Of a DNA stretch of 64,000 nt, positions 57,436 through 64,000 are shown in pieces (position 1 is the stretch's first letter; each line of letters starts with the position of its first letter). The stretch spans positions 1 through 64,000 of the forward strand of contig NZ_QNQT01000009.1 of the NCBI RefSeq assembly GCF_003362805.1, in the 5' to 3' direction. The notes under the pieces are model-generated. The model had not been told where the DNA came from and searched no databases. It saw nothing but the letters and a program-made list of their open reading frames with translations. Both the position numbers and the translations under genes were made by a program. Source of the stretch: Neobacillus piezotolerans. GTDB lineage: Bacteria; Bacillota; Bacilli; Bacillales; Cytobacillaceae.

Positions 57436-57531
57436 CGATTTTATGGCAAAATAATACAAAAGCACTATATTCAATCGTATTTAAACATTTTATGATGTGT
57501 GTAAGAGAACAGTCGACAATCTGCGCGCTGT

Positions 57532-57623
57532 ATCTCGATAAAGGCAAAGCTGATGAAAATCAGTGACGCAAAGCTACAGGGGCTAAGGCACGTTTGTGCT
57601 ATGCCAGCCAGTTACCGAAAGAT
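57532..57623 (+). ncRNA. Cyclic di-GMP-I riboswitch (GEMM-I)
   Basis: Conserved GEMM-I elements in order: GGCAAAGC, stem CTGAT with GAAA tetraloop and ATCAG, the core GTGACGCAAAGC, ACAGGGGCTAAGG, hairpin GCAC-GTTT-GTGC, then ATGCCAGCC and TTACCG. The closing stem uses ATCT near 57532 and AGAT ending at 57623. It lies between the kinase-like gene and the DUF192/Tad operon and reads toward them. Binds c-di-GMP. A candidate -10 TATGAT lies at 57491-57496. Confidence 0.93.
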
Positions 57624-57695
57624 CAGGGTGCATCATAGGTGTGTTTATTTACCAATGACCCCCCTTTCGGTATAGGCGGGGTCATTTTATTTTAC
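57613..57695 (+). terminator. Riboswitch expression platform: terminator and antiterminator
   Basis: Terminator stem AATGACCCC (57654-57662) / GGGGTCATT (57678-57686) with a T tract. The 3' arm of the aptamer, TACCGAAAG (57613-57621), is perfectly complementary to CTTTCGGTA (57664-57672) in the terminator loop, and GGGT.CAT (57626-57633) can pair with ATGACCC (57655-57661). The two folds exclude each other. Since ligand binding locks the aptamer arm, the simplest reading is termination with c-di-GMP, i.e. an OFF switch. Confidence 0.7.
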
Positions 57696-57710
57696 AGGAG
57701 GTGAAGAAGG

Positions 57711-58052
57711 TTGAAGGTCGTGAATCTGTCGAACGGGACGGAAATTGCAGATTCGGTAGCAAACGCCGACAGTTTTTTCAAAAGGCTGAAGGGCCTGATG
57801 TTTACAAAGGATCTGCCCGCGGGTCACGGCCTTATCATACAACCCTGCCAATCCATCCACACATTCTTCATGAACTATCCAATCGATGTTGTGTATTTGG
57901 ACGGAAACAGCATCGTCGTGGGCATTGACGAAAAGATATCGCCCGCAAAAATTGGAAAGGTCCGCCGGAAAGCCCGCTCAGTACTAGAATTGCCGGCGGG
58001 TACCATACAGAATACGGACTTGAAAGTGGGACATTGTTTATCTATTAAATAA
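57711..58052 (+). CDS. DUF192 family protein
   Basis: A 113-residue small beta-barrel protein with the DUF192 signatures RLKGLMFTKDLPAGHGLIIQ and QSIHTFFMNYPIDVVYLDGN, and VLELPAGTI near the end. No signal peptide. TTG start with ACAGGAGGTG upstream, directly after the riboswitch terminator. DUF192 genes are often found with Tad pilus loci, but the role is unknown. As first gene of the operon it shares the riboswitch control. Confidence 0.88.
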   Translation: MKVVNLSNGTEIADSVANADSFFKRLKGLMFTKDLPAGHGLIIQPCQSIHTFFMNYPIDVVYLDGNSIVVGIDEKISPAKIGKVRRKARSVLELPAGTIQNTDLKVGHCLSIK

Positions 58053-58088: not shown

Positions 58089-58271
58089 ATGATGAATAAA
58101 ATGAAAGCATTGCTAACTGAAGAACAAGGACAAGGTATGACTGAGTACGGTTTGGTATTGGGAGTTATCGCGATTGGTGTAGTTGGGCTGCTTGTAGCAT
58201 TCAAAGGAAAAGTTCTTGCTATTTATAAAGAAGTAACTGATGCATTGGGCGTAACTCCTACAAATCCATAA
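58089..58271 (+). CDS. flp: Flp/Fap-type pilin
   Basis: The major subunit of a Tad (Flp) type IVb pilus, 60 residues. Prepilin cleavage motif EEQG/QGMTEYG, with cut after Gly14 and Glu19-Tyr20 at the +5/+6 positions typical of Flp pilins, then the hydrophobic assembly helix LVLGVIAIGVVGLLVAF and a short tail. ATG-ATG start with AAAAGGAG upstream. A repeat element separates it from the assembly genes. Confidence 0.93.
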   Translation: MMNKMKALLTEEQGQGMTEYGLVLGVIAIGVVGLLVAFKGKVLAIYKEVTDALGVTPTNP

Positions 58272-58289: not shown

Positions 58290-58418
58290 GGTTGATTGAA
58301 GCGGAGGGCACCGACTCCGGCGGGATGCAGCGGCAAGGTGGAGACCCCACAGGCGTTAGCGCCGAGGAGGCTCCACTGACGCCCCGCGGAAAGCGTGTGC
58401 CCGGAGCGGAAATCAACC
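58290..58418. repeat. Bacillaceae interspersed repeat (~129 bp)
   Basis: GC-rich element bounded by GGTTGATT (58290-58297) and AATCAACC (58411-58418), with inner AGCGGAGGGC, GGTGGAGACCCC, GCGCCGAGGAGGCTC and CCCCGCGGAAAGCG segments. I recognise this as a dispersed repeat common in Bacillaceae genomes. It lies between flp and tadV and would form long hairpins in the transcript. Confidence 0.75.
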
Positions 58419-58566
58419 GCAAGGTTTCAGTGGACACTATAACCTTATGATTCAACCTATATAATTCAAAAGAGTGTTTTGTAATGTAGTAGGTAAGCCT
58501 TGCGTTTGAGGAGTCAACGTGGGGCTTTTTTCAATCAGAGATTTGCCCGGAAAAGAGGTTTTTAGA

Positions 58567-59082
58567 GTGATAAATGCCATTTTACTGTTTCTGTTGCTTG
58601 CCATTTGCACTGTGACCGATGTGAGGGAGCGGAAAATATACAACAAGGTCCTGCTGCCTTTCCTGCTCGTGTCGCTCGCGGTAAATGGGGTGGCAGGCGG
58701 GCTTGAAGGATTGACGAACTCCGTGCTCGGTCTCCTCGCCGGCTTCTGCATCCTTCTTATCCCTTACTTGCTGGGGGGGATGGGAGCGGGGGACGTTAAA
58801 CTCCTCGCTGTGATCGGGGCATTGATGGGAGCGAAATTCGTCGCGTTATCAGCTATTTATATGGCGCTTGTGGGTGGGGTTTTCGCATTATTCCTGATCG
58901 TGTTCCGCAAAAGCGCCAAGCAATTGCTTAAAGGCGTTTTTTATTCACTAATCGGATTGATGAACGGACTAAAAATCCCGCTGATGTACGATAACGATGC
59001 GATGAAACAGACATATCCTTATGGAGTCGCAATCGCGATTGGCGCCGCCATTCAATTTTTCCGGGCCGGGATGATTTTATGA
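58567..59082 (+). CDS. tadV: Prepilin peptidase TadV
   Basis: A 171-residue aspartic membrane peptidase (A24A family, short form) processing Flp-type prepilins. Catalytic aspartates in TDVRERKIYN (about 18-27) and GGMGAGDVKLL, with about five membrane helices. The GTG at 58567 has AAGAGG upstream; a GTG at 58519 would add 16 residues without a good site. It overlaps tadE as ATGA. Confidence 0.88.
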   Translation: MINAILLFLLLAICTVTDVRERKIYNKVLLPFLLVSLAVNGVAGGLEGLTNSVLGLLAGFCILLIPYLLGGMGAGDVKLLAVIGALMGAKFVALSAIYMALVGGVFALFLIVFRKSAKQLLKGVFYSLIGLMNGLKIPLMYDNDAMKQTYPYGVAIAIGAAIQFFRAGMIL

Positions 59083-59462
59083 GGAAGAGTGAATCAGGCC
59101 AATCACTCGTGGAGACAGCACTTGTCCTGCCCCTTTTATTGTTATTGGTAATCGGGATCCTGGATTTCGGCAGAGTAACATATTCGTATGCCCACCTCCA
59201 CATGGCCGCTCAGGAAACAGTCCGAAAAGGCGGATTGGGGAAATCCGACACGGAAATTGCAACTTTTGCAAAAAATTATGTAAAACTTGGGGATTCAAGC
59301 AAATTAATCGTGGAAATCACCCCGCCCGGGTCATTAAGGAAATCCGGTGATTATGTGAAGGTAAAATTAAAATATCCAATTAAACTATATACCCCGTTTT
59401 TATCAAGTCTCTTTCCAGCCCCGCTTTATGCCCAGACTGATTCTACAATCCGAGTTGAGTAG
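59079..59462 (+). CDS. tadE: TadE-family pseudopilin
   Basis: A 127-residue TadE-like minor pilin: short basic leader, GQSLVETALVLPLLLLLVIG helix with the conserved Glu, then DFGRVTYSYAHLHMAAQETV and a variable extracellular part. Start overlaps the tadV stop, so translation is coupled. TadE/TadF proteins are processed by TadV and needed for pilus assembly or initiation. Confidence 0.88.
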   Translation: MRKSESGQSLVETALVLPLLLLLVIGILDFGRVTYSYAHLHMAAQETVRKGGLGKSDTEIATFAKNYVKLGDSSKLIVEITPPGSLRKSGDYVKVKLKYPIKLYTPFLSSLFPAPLYAQTDSTIRVE

Positions 59463-59474
59463 GGGGGACGGAGC

Positions 59475-60380
59475 ATGGGGAATTTTTTAAAAGAAGAAAA
59501 AGGAGTCGCCATAATCTACGTCGCGCTGTCAATGGTTGCACTGCTTTTCATCACGGGGCTCGCCCTTGACGGCGGAATGCTCTATATGACGAAAAGCAAG
59601 CTTCAAAAGGCCGCGAACGCCGCTGTACTGTCCGGCGCTCAGGAACTGAACAATTCAAATGAACAAGTTAATAAAATCGTGAATAGGATCCTCGCCGACC
59701 ATGGCGAATCGGGGTCACGGGAAAGCCTGCAAATTGTGAAGGAGAAAAAAGTGCGTGTCGGCCTTCTAAAAAAGGTGAAACCGGCCTTCGTGGGATTGTT
59801 CGGGTTTGAAACAGTCGATGTCAGGGCTTCGGCGGCTGCCTCGCTCGCCCCAATGGGCAGGGCTGCTGGAGTCGCGCCGCTTGGCGTGCACGAAGATACC
59901 CCGCTAAATTATGGCGCAGTTGTAAAATTAAAAACAGATGCATCTGGATCTTCCAGCGGGGTTTTCGGCGTCCTGGCCCTAAATGGCCCAGGTGCCAAAA
60001 CGTATGAAGAAAACCTTCGCTACGGGTATCAGCAGGAAATCAAGGTGGGGGAAATCATCCCAACCGAAACAGGTAATATTGCCGGTAAGACGAGAACGGT
60101 TGTTCAGGAATTGATTAATGGATGCACATCCGCTATCGGGGATTTATCCGACCGGGATTGCTCCAGGGTTATCCTCATTCCGGTTTACAAACCATATCAA
60201 TTCGATTCGAATCAGTTGAAAACAATTCAAGTAACCGGGTTTGCCTATTTTTATATCACGGAACCAATGAGCAGTACTGATACATCGATCACAGGGATGT
60301 TCATCAAGTGGCCAGGAACCGGTTTTTACGAGGAAGGCAGTATTGACCGAGGCGCGTATGTTATCAGGCTGACAGAGTAG
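59475..60380 (+). CDS. tadG: TadG-like pilus assembly protein
   Basis: A 301-residue protein with an N-terminal Flp-pilus-associated segment (EEKGVAIIYVALSMVALLFI, then ALDGGMLYMTKSKLQKAANA AVLSGAQEL), the typical TadG/TadF entry, followed by an extracellular domain without a von Willebrand factor domain, so a short TadG form. ATG with AGGGGGGACGGAG upstream. The outer part is presumed to sit at the cell surface with the pilus. Confidence 0.82.
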   Translation: MGNFLKEEKGVAIIYVALSMVALLFITGLALDGGMLYMTKSKLQKAANAAVLSGAQELNNSNEQVNKIVNRILADHGESGSRESLQIVKEKKVRVGLLKKVKPAFVGLFGFETVDVRASAAASLAPMGRAAGVAPLGVHEDTPLNYGAVVKLKTDASGSSSGVFGVLALNGPGAKTYEENLRYGYQQEIKVGEIIPTETGNIAGKTRTVVQELINGCTSAIGDLSDRDCSRVILIPVYKPYQFDSNQLKTIQVTGFAYFYITEPMSSTDTSITGMFIKWPGTGFYEEGSIDRGAYVIRLTE

Positions 60381-60390
60381 GTGGGAAAAA

Positions 60391-61098
60391 ATGCGTTCGA
60401 AAATGGTGTTAATACTGGCCCTTGCCATGGGGATGATTACAACAGTCTTGTTCTACCAATACATGGCGAAGTTTGACAAAAAGGAAACGACTTCCGCGCC
60501 GACGATTGAAATCGTCGTCGCAAAAGAAAGAATCGAGAAGAACGAAAAAATCACGGCGGAGAAACTTGATGTCATCCAGATTCCTGAAGAAAGCGCCTTG
60601 CCACAGACGCTCTCCTCCATTTCACAGGCTGAAGGAAAGCTTGCTGACGCCATGATTGAAAAAGGCGAACCAATTCTTGGCCACAGGCTCGTTTCCCAAA
60701 AAGAAGAAACGGTGTATGTTTCCCGCAAGGTGAGGGAGGGGTACCGTGCTGTATCGGTTTCCTTTAACCTGCCCCAGTCCGTTACGAATTTAGTCGAACC
60801 TGAAGATGAGGTTGACGTGATTTTTTCAAAAGAAGATAAAAAAGCAGTCGATGTGCCCGATTTCAGGGCGAGTATTTTGCTTGAAAAAGCGAGGGTATTG
60901 GCTGTCGGCAGGAAATTCACATTTCCTGAAAATACCAAGGAACCTTATGTGGAATATACGGCTGTCACGCTTGAACTAATGCCTGCAGATGCTGTGAAGC
61001 TTGTCAAGGCATCCCAAGATGGGAGTCTTCATTTAATGCTGCGCACAAGGCCGATTATGAAGGCGGATGCGAACCCTTCGGAAGGAAATGAGAGTTAA
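60391..61098 (+). CDS. cpaB: Pilus assembly protein CpaB/RcpC
   Basis: A 235-residue protein with an N-terminal membrane anchor (MVLILALAMGMITTVLFYQY), a SAF domain (VVAKERIEKNEKITAEKLDV, then IEKGEPILGHRLV) and the RcpC-type domain (GYRAVSVSFNLPQSVTNLVE, EDEVDVIF). In Gram-negative Tad systems it works at the cell wall with the secretin; here it may bind peptidoglycan, since no secretin is expected. ATG with AGGTGGG upstream, 10 bases after tadG. Confidence 0.88.
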   Translation: MRSKMVLILALAMGMITTVLFYQYMAKFDKKETTSAPTIEIVVAKERIEKNEKITAEKLDVIQIPEESALPQTLSSISQAEGKLADAMIEKGEPILGHRLVSQKEETVYVSRKVREGYRAVSVSFNLPQSVTNLVEPEDEVDVIFSKEDKKAVDVPDFRASILLEKARVLAVGRKFTFPENTKEPYVEYTAVTLELMPADAVKLVKASQDGSLHLMLRTRPIMKADANPSEGNES

Positions 61099-61117
61099 GT
61101 GATGGAAGGTGATGGAG

Positions 61118-61975
61118 ATGGCGGGGTTTGATGAAAAGACAACAAGAGAGGGCGGCACTCCGGAAACCCGCGGAAAAATGATTGCCGTCTGCAGCGCCAA
61201 AGGCGGGATTGGCAGGACGATCCTCTCCGTCAATCTGGCTGTCTCATTATCGAAACGAAATCACTCCGTTGCTGTTTTGGATGGCGATTTTCAGTTCGGG
61301 GATGTTTCGCTGGCAATGGATTTGCAGCACACATTCACGATAAAAGAAGCGATGGACGGAATTGGATCACTTGATGAACATCGACTTGAGGATTATTTGA
61401 GCGTCCATGGGAGTGGAGTCCGTGTCCTGCCCGCGCCGGAGCGGCCAGAATATGCCGACATCCTTACAAAAGAGGCTGTTTCCAAAATGGCGGATTTTCT
61501 ATTGATGAAACATGATTTTGTCGTCTGCGATACTGGCGCTGGATTGAATGAACAGACCCTAAACCTGGTTGAGAAGGCGGATGAAATACTAGTTGTCGCA
61601 ACCCTTGAGATGGCCGCGATGAAAAACACGAAGCTGCTGCTTGAAACGCTTGATATCCTCGGGCTTCGCGATAAAGTCCGTGTTGTTTTGAACCGTGCCA
61701 ATATGGAAAGTGTTATTAAAGCCGAGGATGGGGCAAGGATTCTTGGGGAGGAAGCGCCCATTTACATCCCGAATGATTTTCAGACATGCTCAAGGTCCCT
61801 TAATATGGGAAGCCCATTTGTGATCGCTAATGCGAAATCGGATATCGCCAAGGCTGTTTTTAAAATGGCTGAACTAATTGCATCCAACAAGGCGGGGGAA
61901 GGGATTGGGAAAAAGAAGGAAAACCCTTTATCCCTGTTCCCCTGGAAACGTAAGAAAGGGGGAATATCAAAATGA
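61118..61975 (+). CDS. tadZ: TadZ/CpaE-like ParA-type ATPase
   Basis: A 285-residue MinD/ParA-fold protein placing the pilus machine in the cell. The deviant P-loop reads SAKGGIGRTILSVNLAVSL, with Arg where Lys is usual. VAVLDGDFQFGDVSLAMDL and VVCDTGAGLNEQTLN follow. It lacks the N-terminal receiver-like domain of many CpaE proteins. ATG at 61118 has GGAAGGTG upstream; two earlier in-frame starts are alternatives. It overlaps tadA as ATGA. Confidence 0.85.
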   Translation: MAGFDEKTTREGGTPETRGKMIAVCSAKGGIGRTILSVNLAVSLSKRNHSVAVLDGDFQFGDVSLAMDLQHTFTIKEAMDGIGSLDEHRLEDYLSVHGSGVRVLPAPERPEYADILTKEAVSKMADFLLMKHDFVVCDTGAGLNEQTLNLVEKADEILVVATLEMAAMKNTKLLLETLDILGLRDKVRVVLNRANMESVIKAEDGARILGEEAPIYIPNDFQTCSRSLNMGSPFVIANAKSDIAKAVFKMAELIASNKAGEGIGKKKENPLSLFPWKRKKGGISK

Positions 61976-63399
61976 AGCTGCTTGACCGCATCAATGAGAA
62001 AACCAAAACAGCAGAGCCAATTCCCAAACCTGCCGCGGAGCAATCCATTCCGGAAAAAGAAATGCAAAGGGCGGAAACACCTGAAATCCCAAAAGCAAAA
62101 GAAACTCCCCGTGAGCAGCATATAGAGCCGATCCGCCAAAAACAAGTTGATAAGCAGCAGGAATTGAAAAGCATCCTTCATAAAAAAATCCTCCACGAAC
62201 TGAAGGATGAAGAAGTGGAAGCAATCATTCCGAAGCTGGATTCAATGGCGATGGAAGTGATCAAAGAAGATGAATCATTCCGGGGGATTGTCGATAGGAA
62301 AATCGTTGTTGCCGAACTGACCAATGATTTGACGGGATATGGCCCGATCAATCCGCTGCTCCTCGATGAAGAAGTTTCCGAGGTCATGGTCAACGGGCCG
62401 AAGCAGGTTTATTGTGAGCGGAAAGGCAAGCTTGTCTTGACGGATATAACATTCCGCGACAACGAGCATGTGATGAACGTAATCGAGAAAATCGTCGCTC
62501 CCATTGGGCGAAGGATTGATGAAAGCTCGCCGATGGTCGACGCCAGGCTGCCTGACGGGTCCAGGGTTAATGCAATTATCCCTCCACTCGCTCTGAACGG
62601 CCCGACGATAACGATAAGGAAATTTTCCAAGGATCCTTTTCAAATAGAGGATTTAATCAACTTTGGTACGGTTACGAAAGAAATGGCGGTTTTCCTTGAT
62701 GCGTGCGTCAAGGCGCGGCTGAACATATTTGTCAGCGGCGGAACGGGTTCGGGAAAAACAACGACCCTGAACGTGCTTTCGAATTTCATCCCGAATGACG
62801 AACGGATTGTCACGATCGAGGATGCGGCGGAGCTTCAGCTTGGCCAGGATCATGTTGTTTCACTTGAGTCAAGGCCGCCGAATATTGAAGGGAAAGGCGC
62901 GATTACGATCCGCGACCTTGTCAGGAACTCGCTCAGGATGAGGCCGGACCGGGTCGTTATCGGCGAAGTGCGCGGAGCGGAGGCGCTGGATATGCTCCAG
63001 GCTATGAACACTGGGCATGACGGGTCGCTTGCGACGGGACACTCCAACTCTCCGAGGGATATGATCTCTAGGCTTGAAACGATGGTACTGCTTGGCGGGG
63101 TCGAGCTTCCGGTCAAAGCTATCCGCGAGCAGATTTCCGGTGCGCTTGATGTAATTATCCAGCAATCAAGGCTGAAGGATGGTTCGAGGAAAATTACGAA
63201 TATTACCGAGGTCCAGGGCATGGAAGGCGATGTGATTGTCCTTCAGGATATATTTGTATATGAGCAGACAGGCGTGGATGCTTCCGGAAAATATATCGGA
63301 AAACTCGTCCCGACAGGCGTGCGCCCGAAGTTTTATGAACGGCTCGAGAATTCGGGTATCCATATTCCGCCAAGCGTGTTCATCGAAAGGGAGGGTTAA
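61972..63399 (+). CDS. tadA: Pilus motor ATPase TadA/CpaF
   Basis: A 475-residue secretion ATPase driving Flp pilus assembly. After a charged, proline-rich N-terminal stretch (about 1-70), the core shows Walker [16 protein letters not shown] (about 257-271), the Asp box [35 protein letters not shown] (Walker B) and the His box [17 protein letters not shown]. Overlaps tadZ by 4 bases. In Tad systems one ATPase can power both extension and retraction. Confidence 0.94.
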
Positions 63400-63401
63400 C
63401 G

Positions 63402-64000
63402 GTGAAAGCGGTTCTTCTCCTGCTTTTTCTCTTCTCTTCCTTTCTTTTATTCTATGGGTTACTCCAGCTCTTCTTTTTTCGGAACCAAAGGATTGAAAAA
63501 AGGATGGAGAGGTATTTGTCCTCCTCAGCGGAGGTTGAAATCGGAGGCAATGACATTGACCTATTCGCAAGGTACACCGCGGCAAGGAAAAACCTGACCA
63601 AAAAGCTTCTTACAAAAAAGAAGAATAATAAACTTGAAACGATGCTCGCCAGGTCCGGGGTGCCTCTAAAGCCGGACGAGTTCATTACATTCCAATGGAT
63701 CGCGGCGGGTTTATCCGGATTGCTTCTTGTCCTGTTTTTCAGCCACTGGCTATTATTTTTTCCAGGGTTTTTGATTGGGTATTTGATTCCTGGCTTTATC
63801 TTAAAAAAGAAAGAAAAAGAGCGGATTGATAAATTCAATGAAGGGCTCGCAGATATGATTACAACCATCATTGGCTCCTTGAGGGCGGGCTTCAGTTTTC
63901 CGCAGGCATTAAAATCGGTTGCCGATGAATCGGACTCTCCAATTAAAGAGGAAGTCGAATCCGTAATCAAGTCTATGCAATACGGAAGCAGCATTGAAGA
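63402..64000 (+). CDS. tadB: Pilus assembly membrane protein TadB (cut by window end)
   Basis: First ~199 codons of a type II secretion F-domain protein. GTG start with AAAGGGAGGG upstream, 2 bases after tadA. It has an N-terminal helix (LLLLFLFSSFLLFYGLLQLF), a basic loop (KKLLTKKKNNKLETMLARSG), two further hydrophobic segments near 103-140, and the start of the F domain (FNEGLADMITTIIGSLRAGF SFPQALKSV). The frame is open at the window end; tadC would be expected next. Confidence 0.88.
   Translation, partial: MKAVLLLLFLFSSFLLFYGLLQLFFFRNQRIEKRMERYLSSSAEVEIGGNDIDLFARYTAARKNLTKKLLTKKKNNKLETMLARSGVPLKPDEFITFQWIAAGLSGLLLVLFFSHWLLFFPGFLIGYLIPGFILKKKEKERIDKFNEGLADMITTIIGSLRAGFSFPQALKSVADESDSPIKEEVESVIKSMQYGSSIE

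What the first reader, a model, noticed from the sequence alone, without database searches (positions are those of the whole stretch)
57532..57695. c-di-GMP-I riboswitch with a readable OFF switch in front of a Tad/Flp pilus operon
The GEMM-I core is almost canonical and a 9-bp intrinsic terminator follows it. The aptamer's 3' arm TACCGAAAG (57613-57621) is perfectly complementary to CTTTCGGTA (57664-57672) in the terminator loop, and GGGT.CAT can extend the pairing to the terminator's 5' arm. Aptamer closure and antiterminator therefore compete, predicting termination when c-di-GMP is high. Pili are usually promoted by c-di-GMP, so an OFF switch on a Tad operon would be an unexpected logic, perhaps separating a transient attachment pilus from mature biofilm.
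Basis: partly seen in the sequence, partly recalled or inferred. Interest (0 to 1): 0.75.

Follow-up and report, generated by a model that had tools for sequence, protein, structure and literature searches.

The report
Riboswitch predicted to silence attachment pili
The start of a bacterial pilus operon carries a well-preserved RNA sensor that, from its folding, should stop pilus transcription when the signal molecule c-di-GMP is high, and similar sensors sit in front of the same kind of operon in many related bacteria.

Summary
Window 57533-57619 is a canonical c-di-GMP-I (GEMM-I) aptamer (87 bits, E 7.8e-16), followed by an intrinsic terminator. The aptamer's 3' arm (57613-57621) is perfectly complementary to the terminator loop (57664-57672). 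Downstream lies a complete Tad pilus operon headed by DUF192. The GEMM-I core stands before DUF192 in 30 of 30 family loci read, and a covariance model hits directly upstream of DUF192 in 53 of the 80 named loci kept by the search, Bacilli and Clostridia. The helix that excludes the terminator lies over it in 61 of 65 leaders; the same program gives 17 of 32 for other GEMM-I, so OFF topology itself is common. (2) Near the predicted RNA 5' end a conserved strand (57505-57512, 'P0') pairs with the aptamer's P1 5' arm and competes with P1 (0 of 5000 permutations). Model: P0 + antiterminator = ON without ligand; P1 + terminator = OFF with c-di-GMP. Direction is predicted, not measured. C. difficile type IV pili are ON with c-di-GMP. 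New variant of a known kind.

The parts
57491..57496 (+). Putative -10 box TATGAT (TANNAT in all 30 aligned family leaders); no convincing -35 found
   Evidence: Aligned upstream regions; the consensus scanner did not list it
57505..57512 (+). P0 5' strand GAGAACAG, predicted anti-P1 strand close to the predicted RNA 5' end
   Evidence: 8 pairs with 57528-57536; conserved or covarying
57528..57536 (+). P1 5' arm CUGUAUCUC: pairs with P0 (ON state) or with the P1 3' arm (OFF state)
57533..57619 (+). c-di-GMP-I (GEMM-I) aptamer
   Evidence: Rfam RF01051 87 bits
57613..57621 (+). Antiterminator 5' arm UACCGAAAG (includes the conserved ACCG end of the aptamer)
57620..57626 (+). P1 3' arm AGAUCAG
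   Evidence: Proximal 4 bp over 62 leaders: 235 of 248 standard against permuted mean 217, 0 of 5000 (near duplicates not removed)
57626..57628 (+). GGG, inner antiterminator pairing with the terminator's CCC
   Evidence: Standard pair in every cell with letters on both sides; the extension beyond GGG/CCC is not supported
57654..57693 (+). Intrinsic terminator hairpin and U tract
   Evidence: stem pairs
57664..57672 (+). Antiterminator 3' arm CUUUCGGUA, in the terminator loop and upper stem
57696..57703 (+). Ribosome binding site AGGAGGUG
   Evidence: sequence
57711..58052 (+). DUF192 protein (TTG start), first gene of the operon
   Evidence: PF02643 8.8e-21
58089..58271 (+). Flp-like small pilin, named from position, size and sequence
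   Evidence: No Pfam hit, and PF04964 rang in the own genome only at the other Tad locus; a match to this protein follows DUF192 in all 53 riboswitch loci
58519..59082 (+). Prepilin peptidase (TadV/CpaA)
   Evidence: PF01478 1.6e-20
59079..59462 (+). TadE minor pilin
   Evidence: PF07811 9.8e-14
59475..60380 (+). TadG-like protein
   Evidence: PF13400 3.4e-10
60391..61098 (+). CpaB/RcpC
   Evidence: PF16976 2e-21
61109..61975 (+). CpaE/TadZ-like ATPase (name from position)
   Evidence: PF13614 1.8e-14
61972..63399 (+). CpaF/TadA ATPase
   Evidence: PF00437 3.3e-68
63402..64000 (+). TadB, runs past the window end; TadC follows at contig 64368-65285
   Evidence: PF00482 1.1e-22 and 1.1e-15 on the full genes

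Best explanation
A c-di-GMP-I riboswitch that turns the Tad pilus operon OFF by transcription termination. Shown: the aptamer, the terminator, the antiterminator complementarity, the P0 complementarity, and their conservation. Inferred: without c-di-GMP the new RNA's 5' strand (P0) holds the aptamer's P1 5' arm, the P1 3' arm is free to pair with the terminator loop (antiterminator), and RNA polymerase reads into DUF192-flp-tad. With c-di-GMP bound, P1 closes, displaces P0 and takes the 3' arm away, so the terminator forms and the operon is off. Likely role (weakest step): the pilus belongs to the low-c-di-GMP, motile or first-contact state and is shut off once c-di-GMP rises, possibly as negative feedback on a surface-sensing pilus. 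The confidence given is for the OFF riboswitch; I put P0 as a working part at about 0.6 and the stated role at about 0.4.
For: Aptamer. Window energetics at the decision point (transcript end 57674): P0+antiterminator -52.6 against P1 state -44.6 kcal/mol; at 57700 the two are near equal, -61.4 against -61.9. Helix over the terminator in 61 of 65 leaders; the best helix is reached by 5 or fewer of 100 shuffles in 59 of 65 leaders, and the looser duplex by 10 or fewer of 200 in 45 of 65. Covariance hit directly upstream of DUF192 in 53 of 80 named loci, all on the operon strand. P1 covaries (62 leaders). P0: matched mean -7.12 against permuted -5.94 kcal/mol, 0 of 5000, 36 leaders; the nucleotide that is bulged in P1 pairs in P0 in 40 of 44 leaders that could be read: 28 U-A, 10 A-U, 2 U-G.
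Against: No ligand response was measured. The outer antiterminator helix is conserved rather than covarying (495 of 512 standard against permuted mean 492; 63 of 2000 permutations as high). The inner extension fails its test (4958 of 5000 permutations as good or better). The alternative helices of the clostridial leaders are not remarkable singly (L098 45, L100 11, L115 30 of 100 shuffles as good). In 21 of 65 leaders the full-length minimum-energy fold does not beat the antiterminated one. In the window, between 57640 and 57660 the P1 fold is 2.3 kcal/mol better than the P0 fold even without ligand, so P0 holding P1 open at that stage would have to be kinetic. On the 30-leader alignment the counts of pairs with two-sided change and of pair types do not exceed shuffles (490 and 452 of 500; 215 and 85 of 500). 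P0 could not be read in the standard form in 20 of 64 leaders. Bc1 of B. thuringiensis, class I with terminators, did not change downstream expression with c-di-GMP in the authors' assays.
Confidence: 0.85

Rival explanations
1. ON switch: c-di-GMP binding promotes read-through, as for Bc2 in front of cap in B. thuringiensis.
For: Bc2, a class I switch in a Bacillus, is ON; 5 of 32 other GEMM-I leaders tested, two of them in the window's own genome (L007, L009), look ON because the terminator overlaps the aptamer end.
Against: Here the terminator begins 34 nt after the aptamer end and shares no base with it; the structure that excludes the terminator uses the aptamer's own 3' arm.
Confidence: 0.06
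2. A real aptamer whose regulation is weak or lost, so the leader acts mainly as a fixed attenuator (as reported for Bc1 in its host).
For: Bc1 precedent; only 11 of 16 c-di-GMP riboswitches of C. difficile 630 are called functional; L105 keeps aptamer and antiterminator but no terminator over the helix was found, and L130 has a degraded aptamer.
Against: Conservation across genera of aptamer, P1 and terminator, and of P0 in most Bacilli leaders; near-equal energy of the two final states in the window.
Confidence: 0.08
3. The loop sequence CUUUCGGUAAAG is conserved for terminator strength only, and the complementarity to the aptamer is a by-product.
For: In most of the 30 relatives CUUU/AAAG can pair within the terminator; little covariation of the outer helix.
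Against: The CGG in the loop is unpaired in that stem yet nearly invariant (63, 62 and 60 of 64); the window (AUAGG), L106 and L113 (GGUAG) lose the CUUU/AAAG stem in whole or part but keep the complement to the aptamer, with CUACC/GGUAG instead of UUACC/GGUAA in L106 and L113.
Confidence: 0.1
4. The ligand is 3',3'-cGAMP (GEMM-Ib) rather than c-di-GMP.
For: A GEMM-I with the G20A change binds cGAMP (passages).
Against: The window has the canonical GG before CAAA and scores 87 bits with the c-di-GMP-I model; the placing of position 20 there is recalled.
Confidence: 0.03

Closest known systems
Class I (GEMM-I) OFF riboswitches of Clostridioides difficile, e.g. Cd1 before the flgB flagellar operon
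   Same: Same aptamer class; ligand-triggered transcription termination as stated
   Different: Controls flagella there, a Tad pilus operon here; an upstream P0 strand is not mentioned in the passages I saw
Class II c-di-GMP riboswitch before the C. difficile type IV pilus operon
   Same: c-di-GMP riboswitch directly upstream of a type IV pilus operon in a Gram-positive bacterium
   Different: Different aptamer class and ON logic
Bc2 before cap in Bacillus thuringiensis
   Same: Class I aptamer plus terminator in a Bacillus, before a surface adhesin gene
   Different: ON switch by in vitro and in vivo test (passages)
Bc1 before mcpE in Bacillus thuringiensis
   Same: Class I aptamer with a long expression platform with terminators
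   Different: Two terminators; no c-di-GMP response of downstream expression in the authors' assays (passages)

Membership tests
c-di-GMP-I (GEMM-I) riboswitch, RF01051 | Covariance-model match above gathering score | tested here: met
   87 bits against 35, E 7.8e-16
c-di-GMP-I (GEMM-I) riboswitch, RF01051 | GAAA tetraloop and the conserved junction core | tested here: met
   Model alignment full length 1-87
c-di-GMP-I (GEMM-I) riboswitch, RF01051 | Binds c-di-GMP | not testable with these tools
   needs in-line probing or a binding assay
Transcriptional OFF riboswitch | Intrinsic terminator downstream, not overlapping the aptamer | tested here: met
Transcriptional OFF riboswitch | Antiterminator that excludes both the closed aptamer and the terminator | tested here: met
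   By sequence and energy in the window; 61 of 65 leaders; helix conserved, little covariation
Transcriptional OFF riboswitch | Termination rises with ligand | not testable with these tools
   needs transcription assays
Tad/Flp (type IVc) pilus operon | Flp pilin, A24 peptidase, TadE, CpaB, CpaE, CpaF, two T2SSF platform proteins | tested here: met
   for all but the pilin, which has no Pfam hit and is named from position, size and sequence
GEMM-Ib (cGAMP) riboswitch | A in place of G at the specificity position | tested here: not met
   GG present in the alignment; numbering of the position recalled

The most novel reading that the evidence does not exclude
The Tad leader is a four-strand switch that I have not seen described for GEMM-I: a strand near the RNA's 5' end (P0) copies the P1 3' arm and sequesters the P1 5' arm, so the default is antitermination and c-di-GMP must displace P0 to shut the pilus off. 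This default-ON design is old in the Tad pili of Bacilli and makes the Tad pilus a low-c-di-GMP, motile or first-contact organelle in these bacteria.
Probability: 0.5. Interest if true: 0.75.

Novelty: new variant of a known kind. Interest (0 to 1): 0.62.

Why it matters
It would give a direct, testable gene-regulatory link between c-di-GMP and Tad pili in Bacilli and Clostridia, with a sign opposite to the C. difficile type IV pilus. In Caulobacter the Tad pilus is discussed as a sensor that raises c-di-GMP on contact (passages), so an OFF switch on tad would close a negative feedback loop. The P0 strand adds an element to a textbook riboswitch class and can be tested by single changes and their compensations.

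Tried and rejected
ON logic was considered and rejected because terminator and aptamer share no bases. The inner GGGT.CAT pairing was tested as a conserved helix and rejected: matched mean -6.44 against permuted -6.92 kcal/mol, 4958 of 5000 permutations as good or better, 42 leaders left after removing near duplicates from 61. Covariation of the outer antiterminator helix was tested and is weak (64 leaders, L130 left out, registers chosen by program). A shuffle test of looser duplexes gave 45 of 65 leaders at 10 or fewer of 200 shuffles and 20 of 65 above (window 3, L127 133). That the antiterminated fold is lower than the shorter transcript before it in 64 of 65 is not used, because a longer RNA folds lower anyway. 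I first took the 61 of 65 as special; the control added on re-checking shows 17 of 32 other GEMM-I leaders with a helix over a separate terminator, 5 with a terminator that overlaps the aptamer end, 5 with the helix elsewhere, 5 with no terminator found; a 33rd was too short. So OFF topology is common, and I claim only its constancy at Tad operons.

P0 controls: a first control on other GEMM-I was badly anchored (2 of 33); redone with correct anchors it gave 4 of 33 at p<=0.05, mean -2.99 against shuffled -2.63. Only 18 of 36 Tad leaders reach p<=0.05 singly, and the five Tad aptamers in the redone control set reach it in 1 of 5, so the evidence for P0 is the permutation test and the paired changes, not single leaders. 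63 leaders entered the P0 test (L125 and L130 left out) and 36 remained after removing near duplicates; in L108 the motif lay outside the stretch tested.

Nine loci with DUF192 at the head of tad genes and upstream sequence but no R1 hit (L099, L103, L104, L122, L123, L124, L131, L135, L137) were scanned against Rfam at gathering threshold: no riboswitch. Eight of them, by eye, share another leader; L099 does not.

Literature: ten searches of open-licence PMC papers. No listed title or abstract start tells of a c-di-GMP riboswitch on a Tad operon, but three lists were cut (20 of 24, 25 of 72, 15 of 212), the library is partial, and an original GEMM paper that I asked for is not held. I used no call of structure prediction or fold search.

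Full report
WHAT WAS CHECKED. The aptamer is real: RF01051 (c-di-GMP-I) at 57533-57619, 87 bits, E 7.8e-16, the only Rfam hit at gathering threshold in the window. The genes downstream form a complete Tad operon: DUF192, a small Flp-like pilin, A24 peptidase, TadE, TadG-like, CpaB, CpaE-like, CpaF and, running past the window's end, two T2SSF platform proteins. The pilin has no Pfam hit and is named from its place, size and sequence.

THE GENOME. The window's assembly gave nine GEMM-I matches. It also holds a second Tad locus with the DUF192 gene divergent from flp; no GEMM-I match lies on that contig. The nearest named loci found are of Bacillus sp. FJAT-27245 and FJAT-27445 (92% identity in DUF192) and Neobacillus notoginsengisoli (83%); the tool may leave out the genome itself.

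CONSERVATION. Searching 193 genomes of the family with the window's DUF192 gave a match in 77 genomes; 31 rows had E of 1.9e-38 or lower, and the tool kept loci for the best 30. All 30 carry the GEMM-I core (found by a core pattern, not by the covariance model) and a CTTTCGG terminator loop. Their alignment shows both halves of the antiterminator kept, while the linker between them differs strongly in length and sequence. A wider search used an alignment of 18 DUF192 proteins, all from riboswitch-bearing loci, so it leans towards such operons; 234 relatives were found and the best 80 kept as named loci. A covariance model built from 33 GEMM-I aptamers hit 53 of the 80, all on the operon strand and directly upstream of DUF192; 52 have E below 1e-9 and one, L130, is weak (1.6e-6). 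They include Bacillaceae, Paenibacillus and Cohnella, and Clostridia (Oceanirhabdus, Anaerosolibacter). All 53 have flp, TadV and TadE matches downstream on the same strand. Nine further loci have DUF192 followed by flp but no hit; one of these (L134) has only 30 nt upstream and cannot be judged, so the score is 53 of 61 that can be judged. L099, with tad genes but no flp match, also has no hit. Three loci with divergent DUF192 (L136, L145, L146) and the other 14 loci have none.

LOGIC. In 61 it lies over the terminator, in 1 (L105) outside, and in 3 (L111, L115, L125) the program found no terminator; L115 has one by eye, and L130, counted among the 61, has a helix no better than chance (24 of 100 shuffles). 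The best helix is reached by 5 or fewer of 100 shuffles in 59 of 65 leaders. As control, the same program on 32 other GEMM-I leaders gave 17 with a helix over a separate terminator, 5 with a terminator overlapping the aptamer end (ON-like), 5 with the helix elsewhere and 5 with no terminator: OFF topology is the commonest kind here, and the Tad leaders are remarkable for constancy rather than for kind. L098, L100 and L115 use AAGGU/ACCUU in place of CCGAAAG/CUUUCGG with the same arrangement, but singly these helices are not remarkable (45, 11 and 30 of 100 shuffles). In the window, when the polymerase has just exposed CUUUCGGUA, the antiterminated fold is 4 kcal/mol better than the P1 fold without the 5' strand and 8 better with it. 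With the terminator complete, the two states are near equal (-61.9 for P1, -61.4 for P0 plus antiterminator). These energies know neither ligand nor polymerase footprint. Against: in 21 of 65 leaders the full-length minimum-energy fold is not better than the antiterminated one, and the outer helix shows conservation but little covariation (in one search, 7 of its 9 pairs show no change that keeps the pair).

A NEW STRAND. Aligning the 30 upstream regions showed a TANNAT box followed by a nearly constant AAGAGA(T/A)CAGTCG. GAGAUCAG is complementary to the P1 5' arm CUGA(N)UCUC: it imitates the P1 3' arm and would hold P1 open. In the window GAGAACAG (57505-57512) pairs with CUGU-A-UCUC (57528-57536), eight pairs with one bulge. 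In 44 of 64 leaders both motifs could be read; the nucleotide that is bulged in P1 pairs in P0 in 40 of them: 28 U-A, 10 A-U, 2 U-G, 4 mismatches. The ten A-U cases are the eight genomes of the window's genus plus Evansella clarkii (L096) and a MAG (L112), so they are at most three events. L107 has UAG/CUA in place of CAG/CUG and, by eye, UAG in its P1 3' arm as well. L108 keeps the strand although it lies 57 nt from the arm. Over 36 non-redundant leaders, matched pairs average -7.12 kcal/mol against -5.94 for permuted ones, none of 5000 as low. In the alignment of 30, the ON-state set pairs in 98.2% of cells against 96.4% shuffled (0 of 500) and the OFF-state set in 92.5% against 89.3% (0 of 500); but the counts of pairs with two-sided change and of pair types do not exceed shuffles (490 and 452 of 500; 215 and 85 of 500), and the tool warns that relatedness inflates the first kind of measure. 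In the window the P0 fold is lower than the P1 fold up to 57630 but 2.3 kcal/mol higher between 57640 and 57660, so P0 would have to act kinetically there. P0 is missing or in another form in the clostridial and some other leaders.

FUNCTION. C. difficile class I switches are OFF and its pilus operon is under a class II ON switch (first of three parts of the paper, passages). B. thuringiensis Bc2 is class I and ON (passages). So an OFF class I switch is ordinary in kind, but on a pilus operon it is the reverse of that case. In alphaproteobacteria the Tad pilus is discussed as a surface sensor that raises c-di-GMP (passages). An OFF switch would then switch the sensor off after contact. This is inference. 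The own genome offers context only: by fold, L009 and L007 look ON (terminator overlaps the aptamer end) and L003 before fliM has a separate terminator like the Tad leader.

WHAT IS KNOWN. Ten searches of open PMC papers (three lists cut) showed no title or abstract start on a c-di-GMP riboswitch of a Tad operon; the one original GEMM paper asked for is not held and could list pilus genes. I did not see a P0-type strand mentioned in the passages shown; no search was made for it by name. The novelty claim is limited to that.

ON RE-CHECKING. It strengthens the single-helix evidence (59 of 65) and weakens two points (OFF topology is common; the clostridial helices are weak singly).

Noticed in passing
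L006 (own genome, contig C31 near its end): A GEMM-I aptamer precedes a small SinI-family anti-repressor gene (PF08671, 9e-9), which would tie c-di-GMP to a biofilm-type regulator; ON or OFF not resolved.
   Followed up: partly
L003 (own genome, C34:22406-22494, minus strand): GEMM-I before a FliM gene, with a separate strong terminator and UUCGG in its loop complementary to the aptamer end.
   Followed up: partly
L103, L104, L122, L123, L124, L131, L135, L137 upstream of DUF192: DUF192-first Tad operons of Oceanobacillus, Alteribacillus, Sediminibacillus, Halobacillus dabanensis and Virgibacillus lack the riboswitch and, by eye, share another leader with GGGGGATA-like and TAGGAAT/ATTCCTA-like motifs, perhaps a protein-controlled promoter.
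   Followed up: no
L039 (own genome, contig C15): Second Tad locus with divergent DUF192 and no GEMM-I match; a GTTCTTTTAAAAGAAC palindrome lies upstream.
   Followed up: no
window 57711-58052 and loci L070-L149: Among loci found with DUF192 (unknown function), most have Tad genes close by, with DUF192 at the head or divergent.
   Followed up: partly
window 58300-58440: G+C-rich, palindrome-like intergenic element between flp and the prepilin peptidase gene (seen).
   Followed up: no
L105 (Fictibacillus nanhaiensis): Aptamer and antiterminator kept, but no terminator over the helix and no P0 motif of the standard form: possibly a decayed switch.
   Followed up: partly
L115 and L126 aptamers: TAGCAAA in place of AGGCAAA at the junction; may bear on ligand choice.
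   Followed up: no
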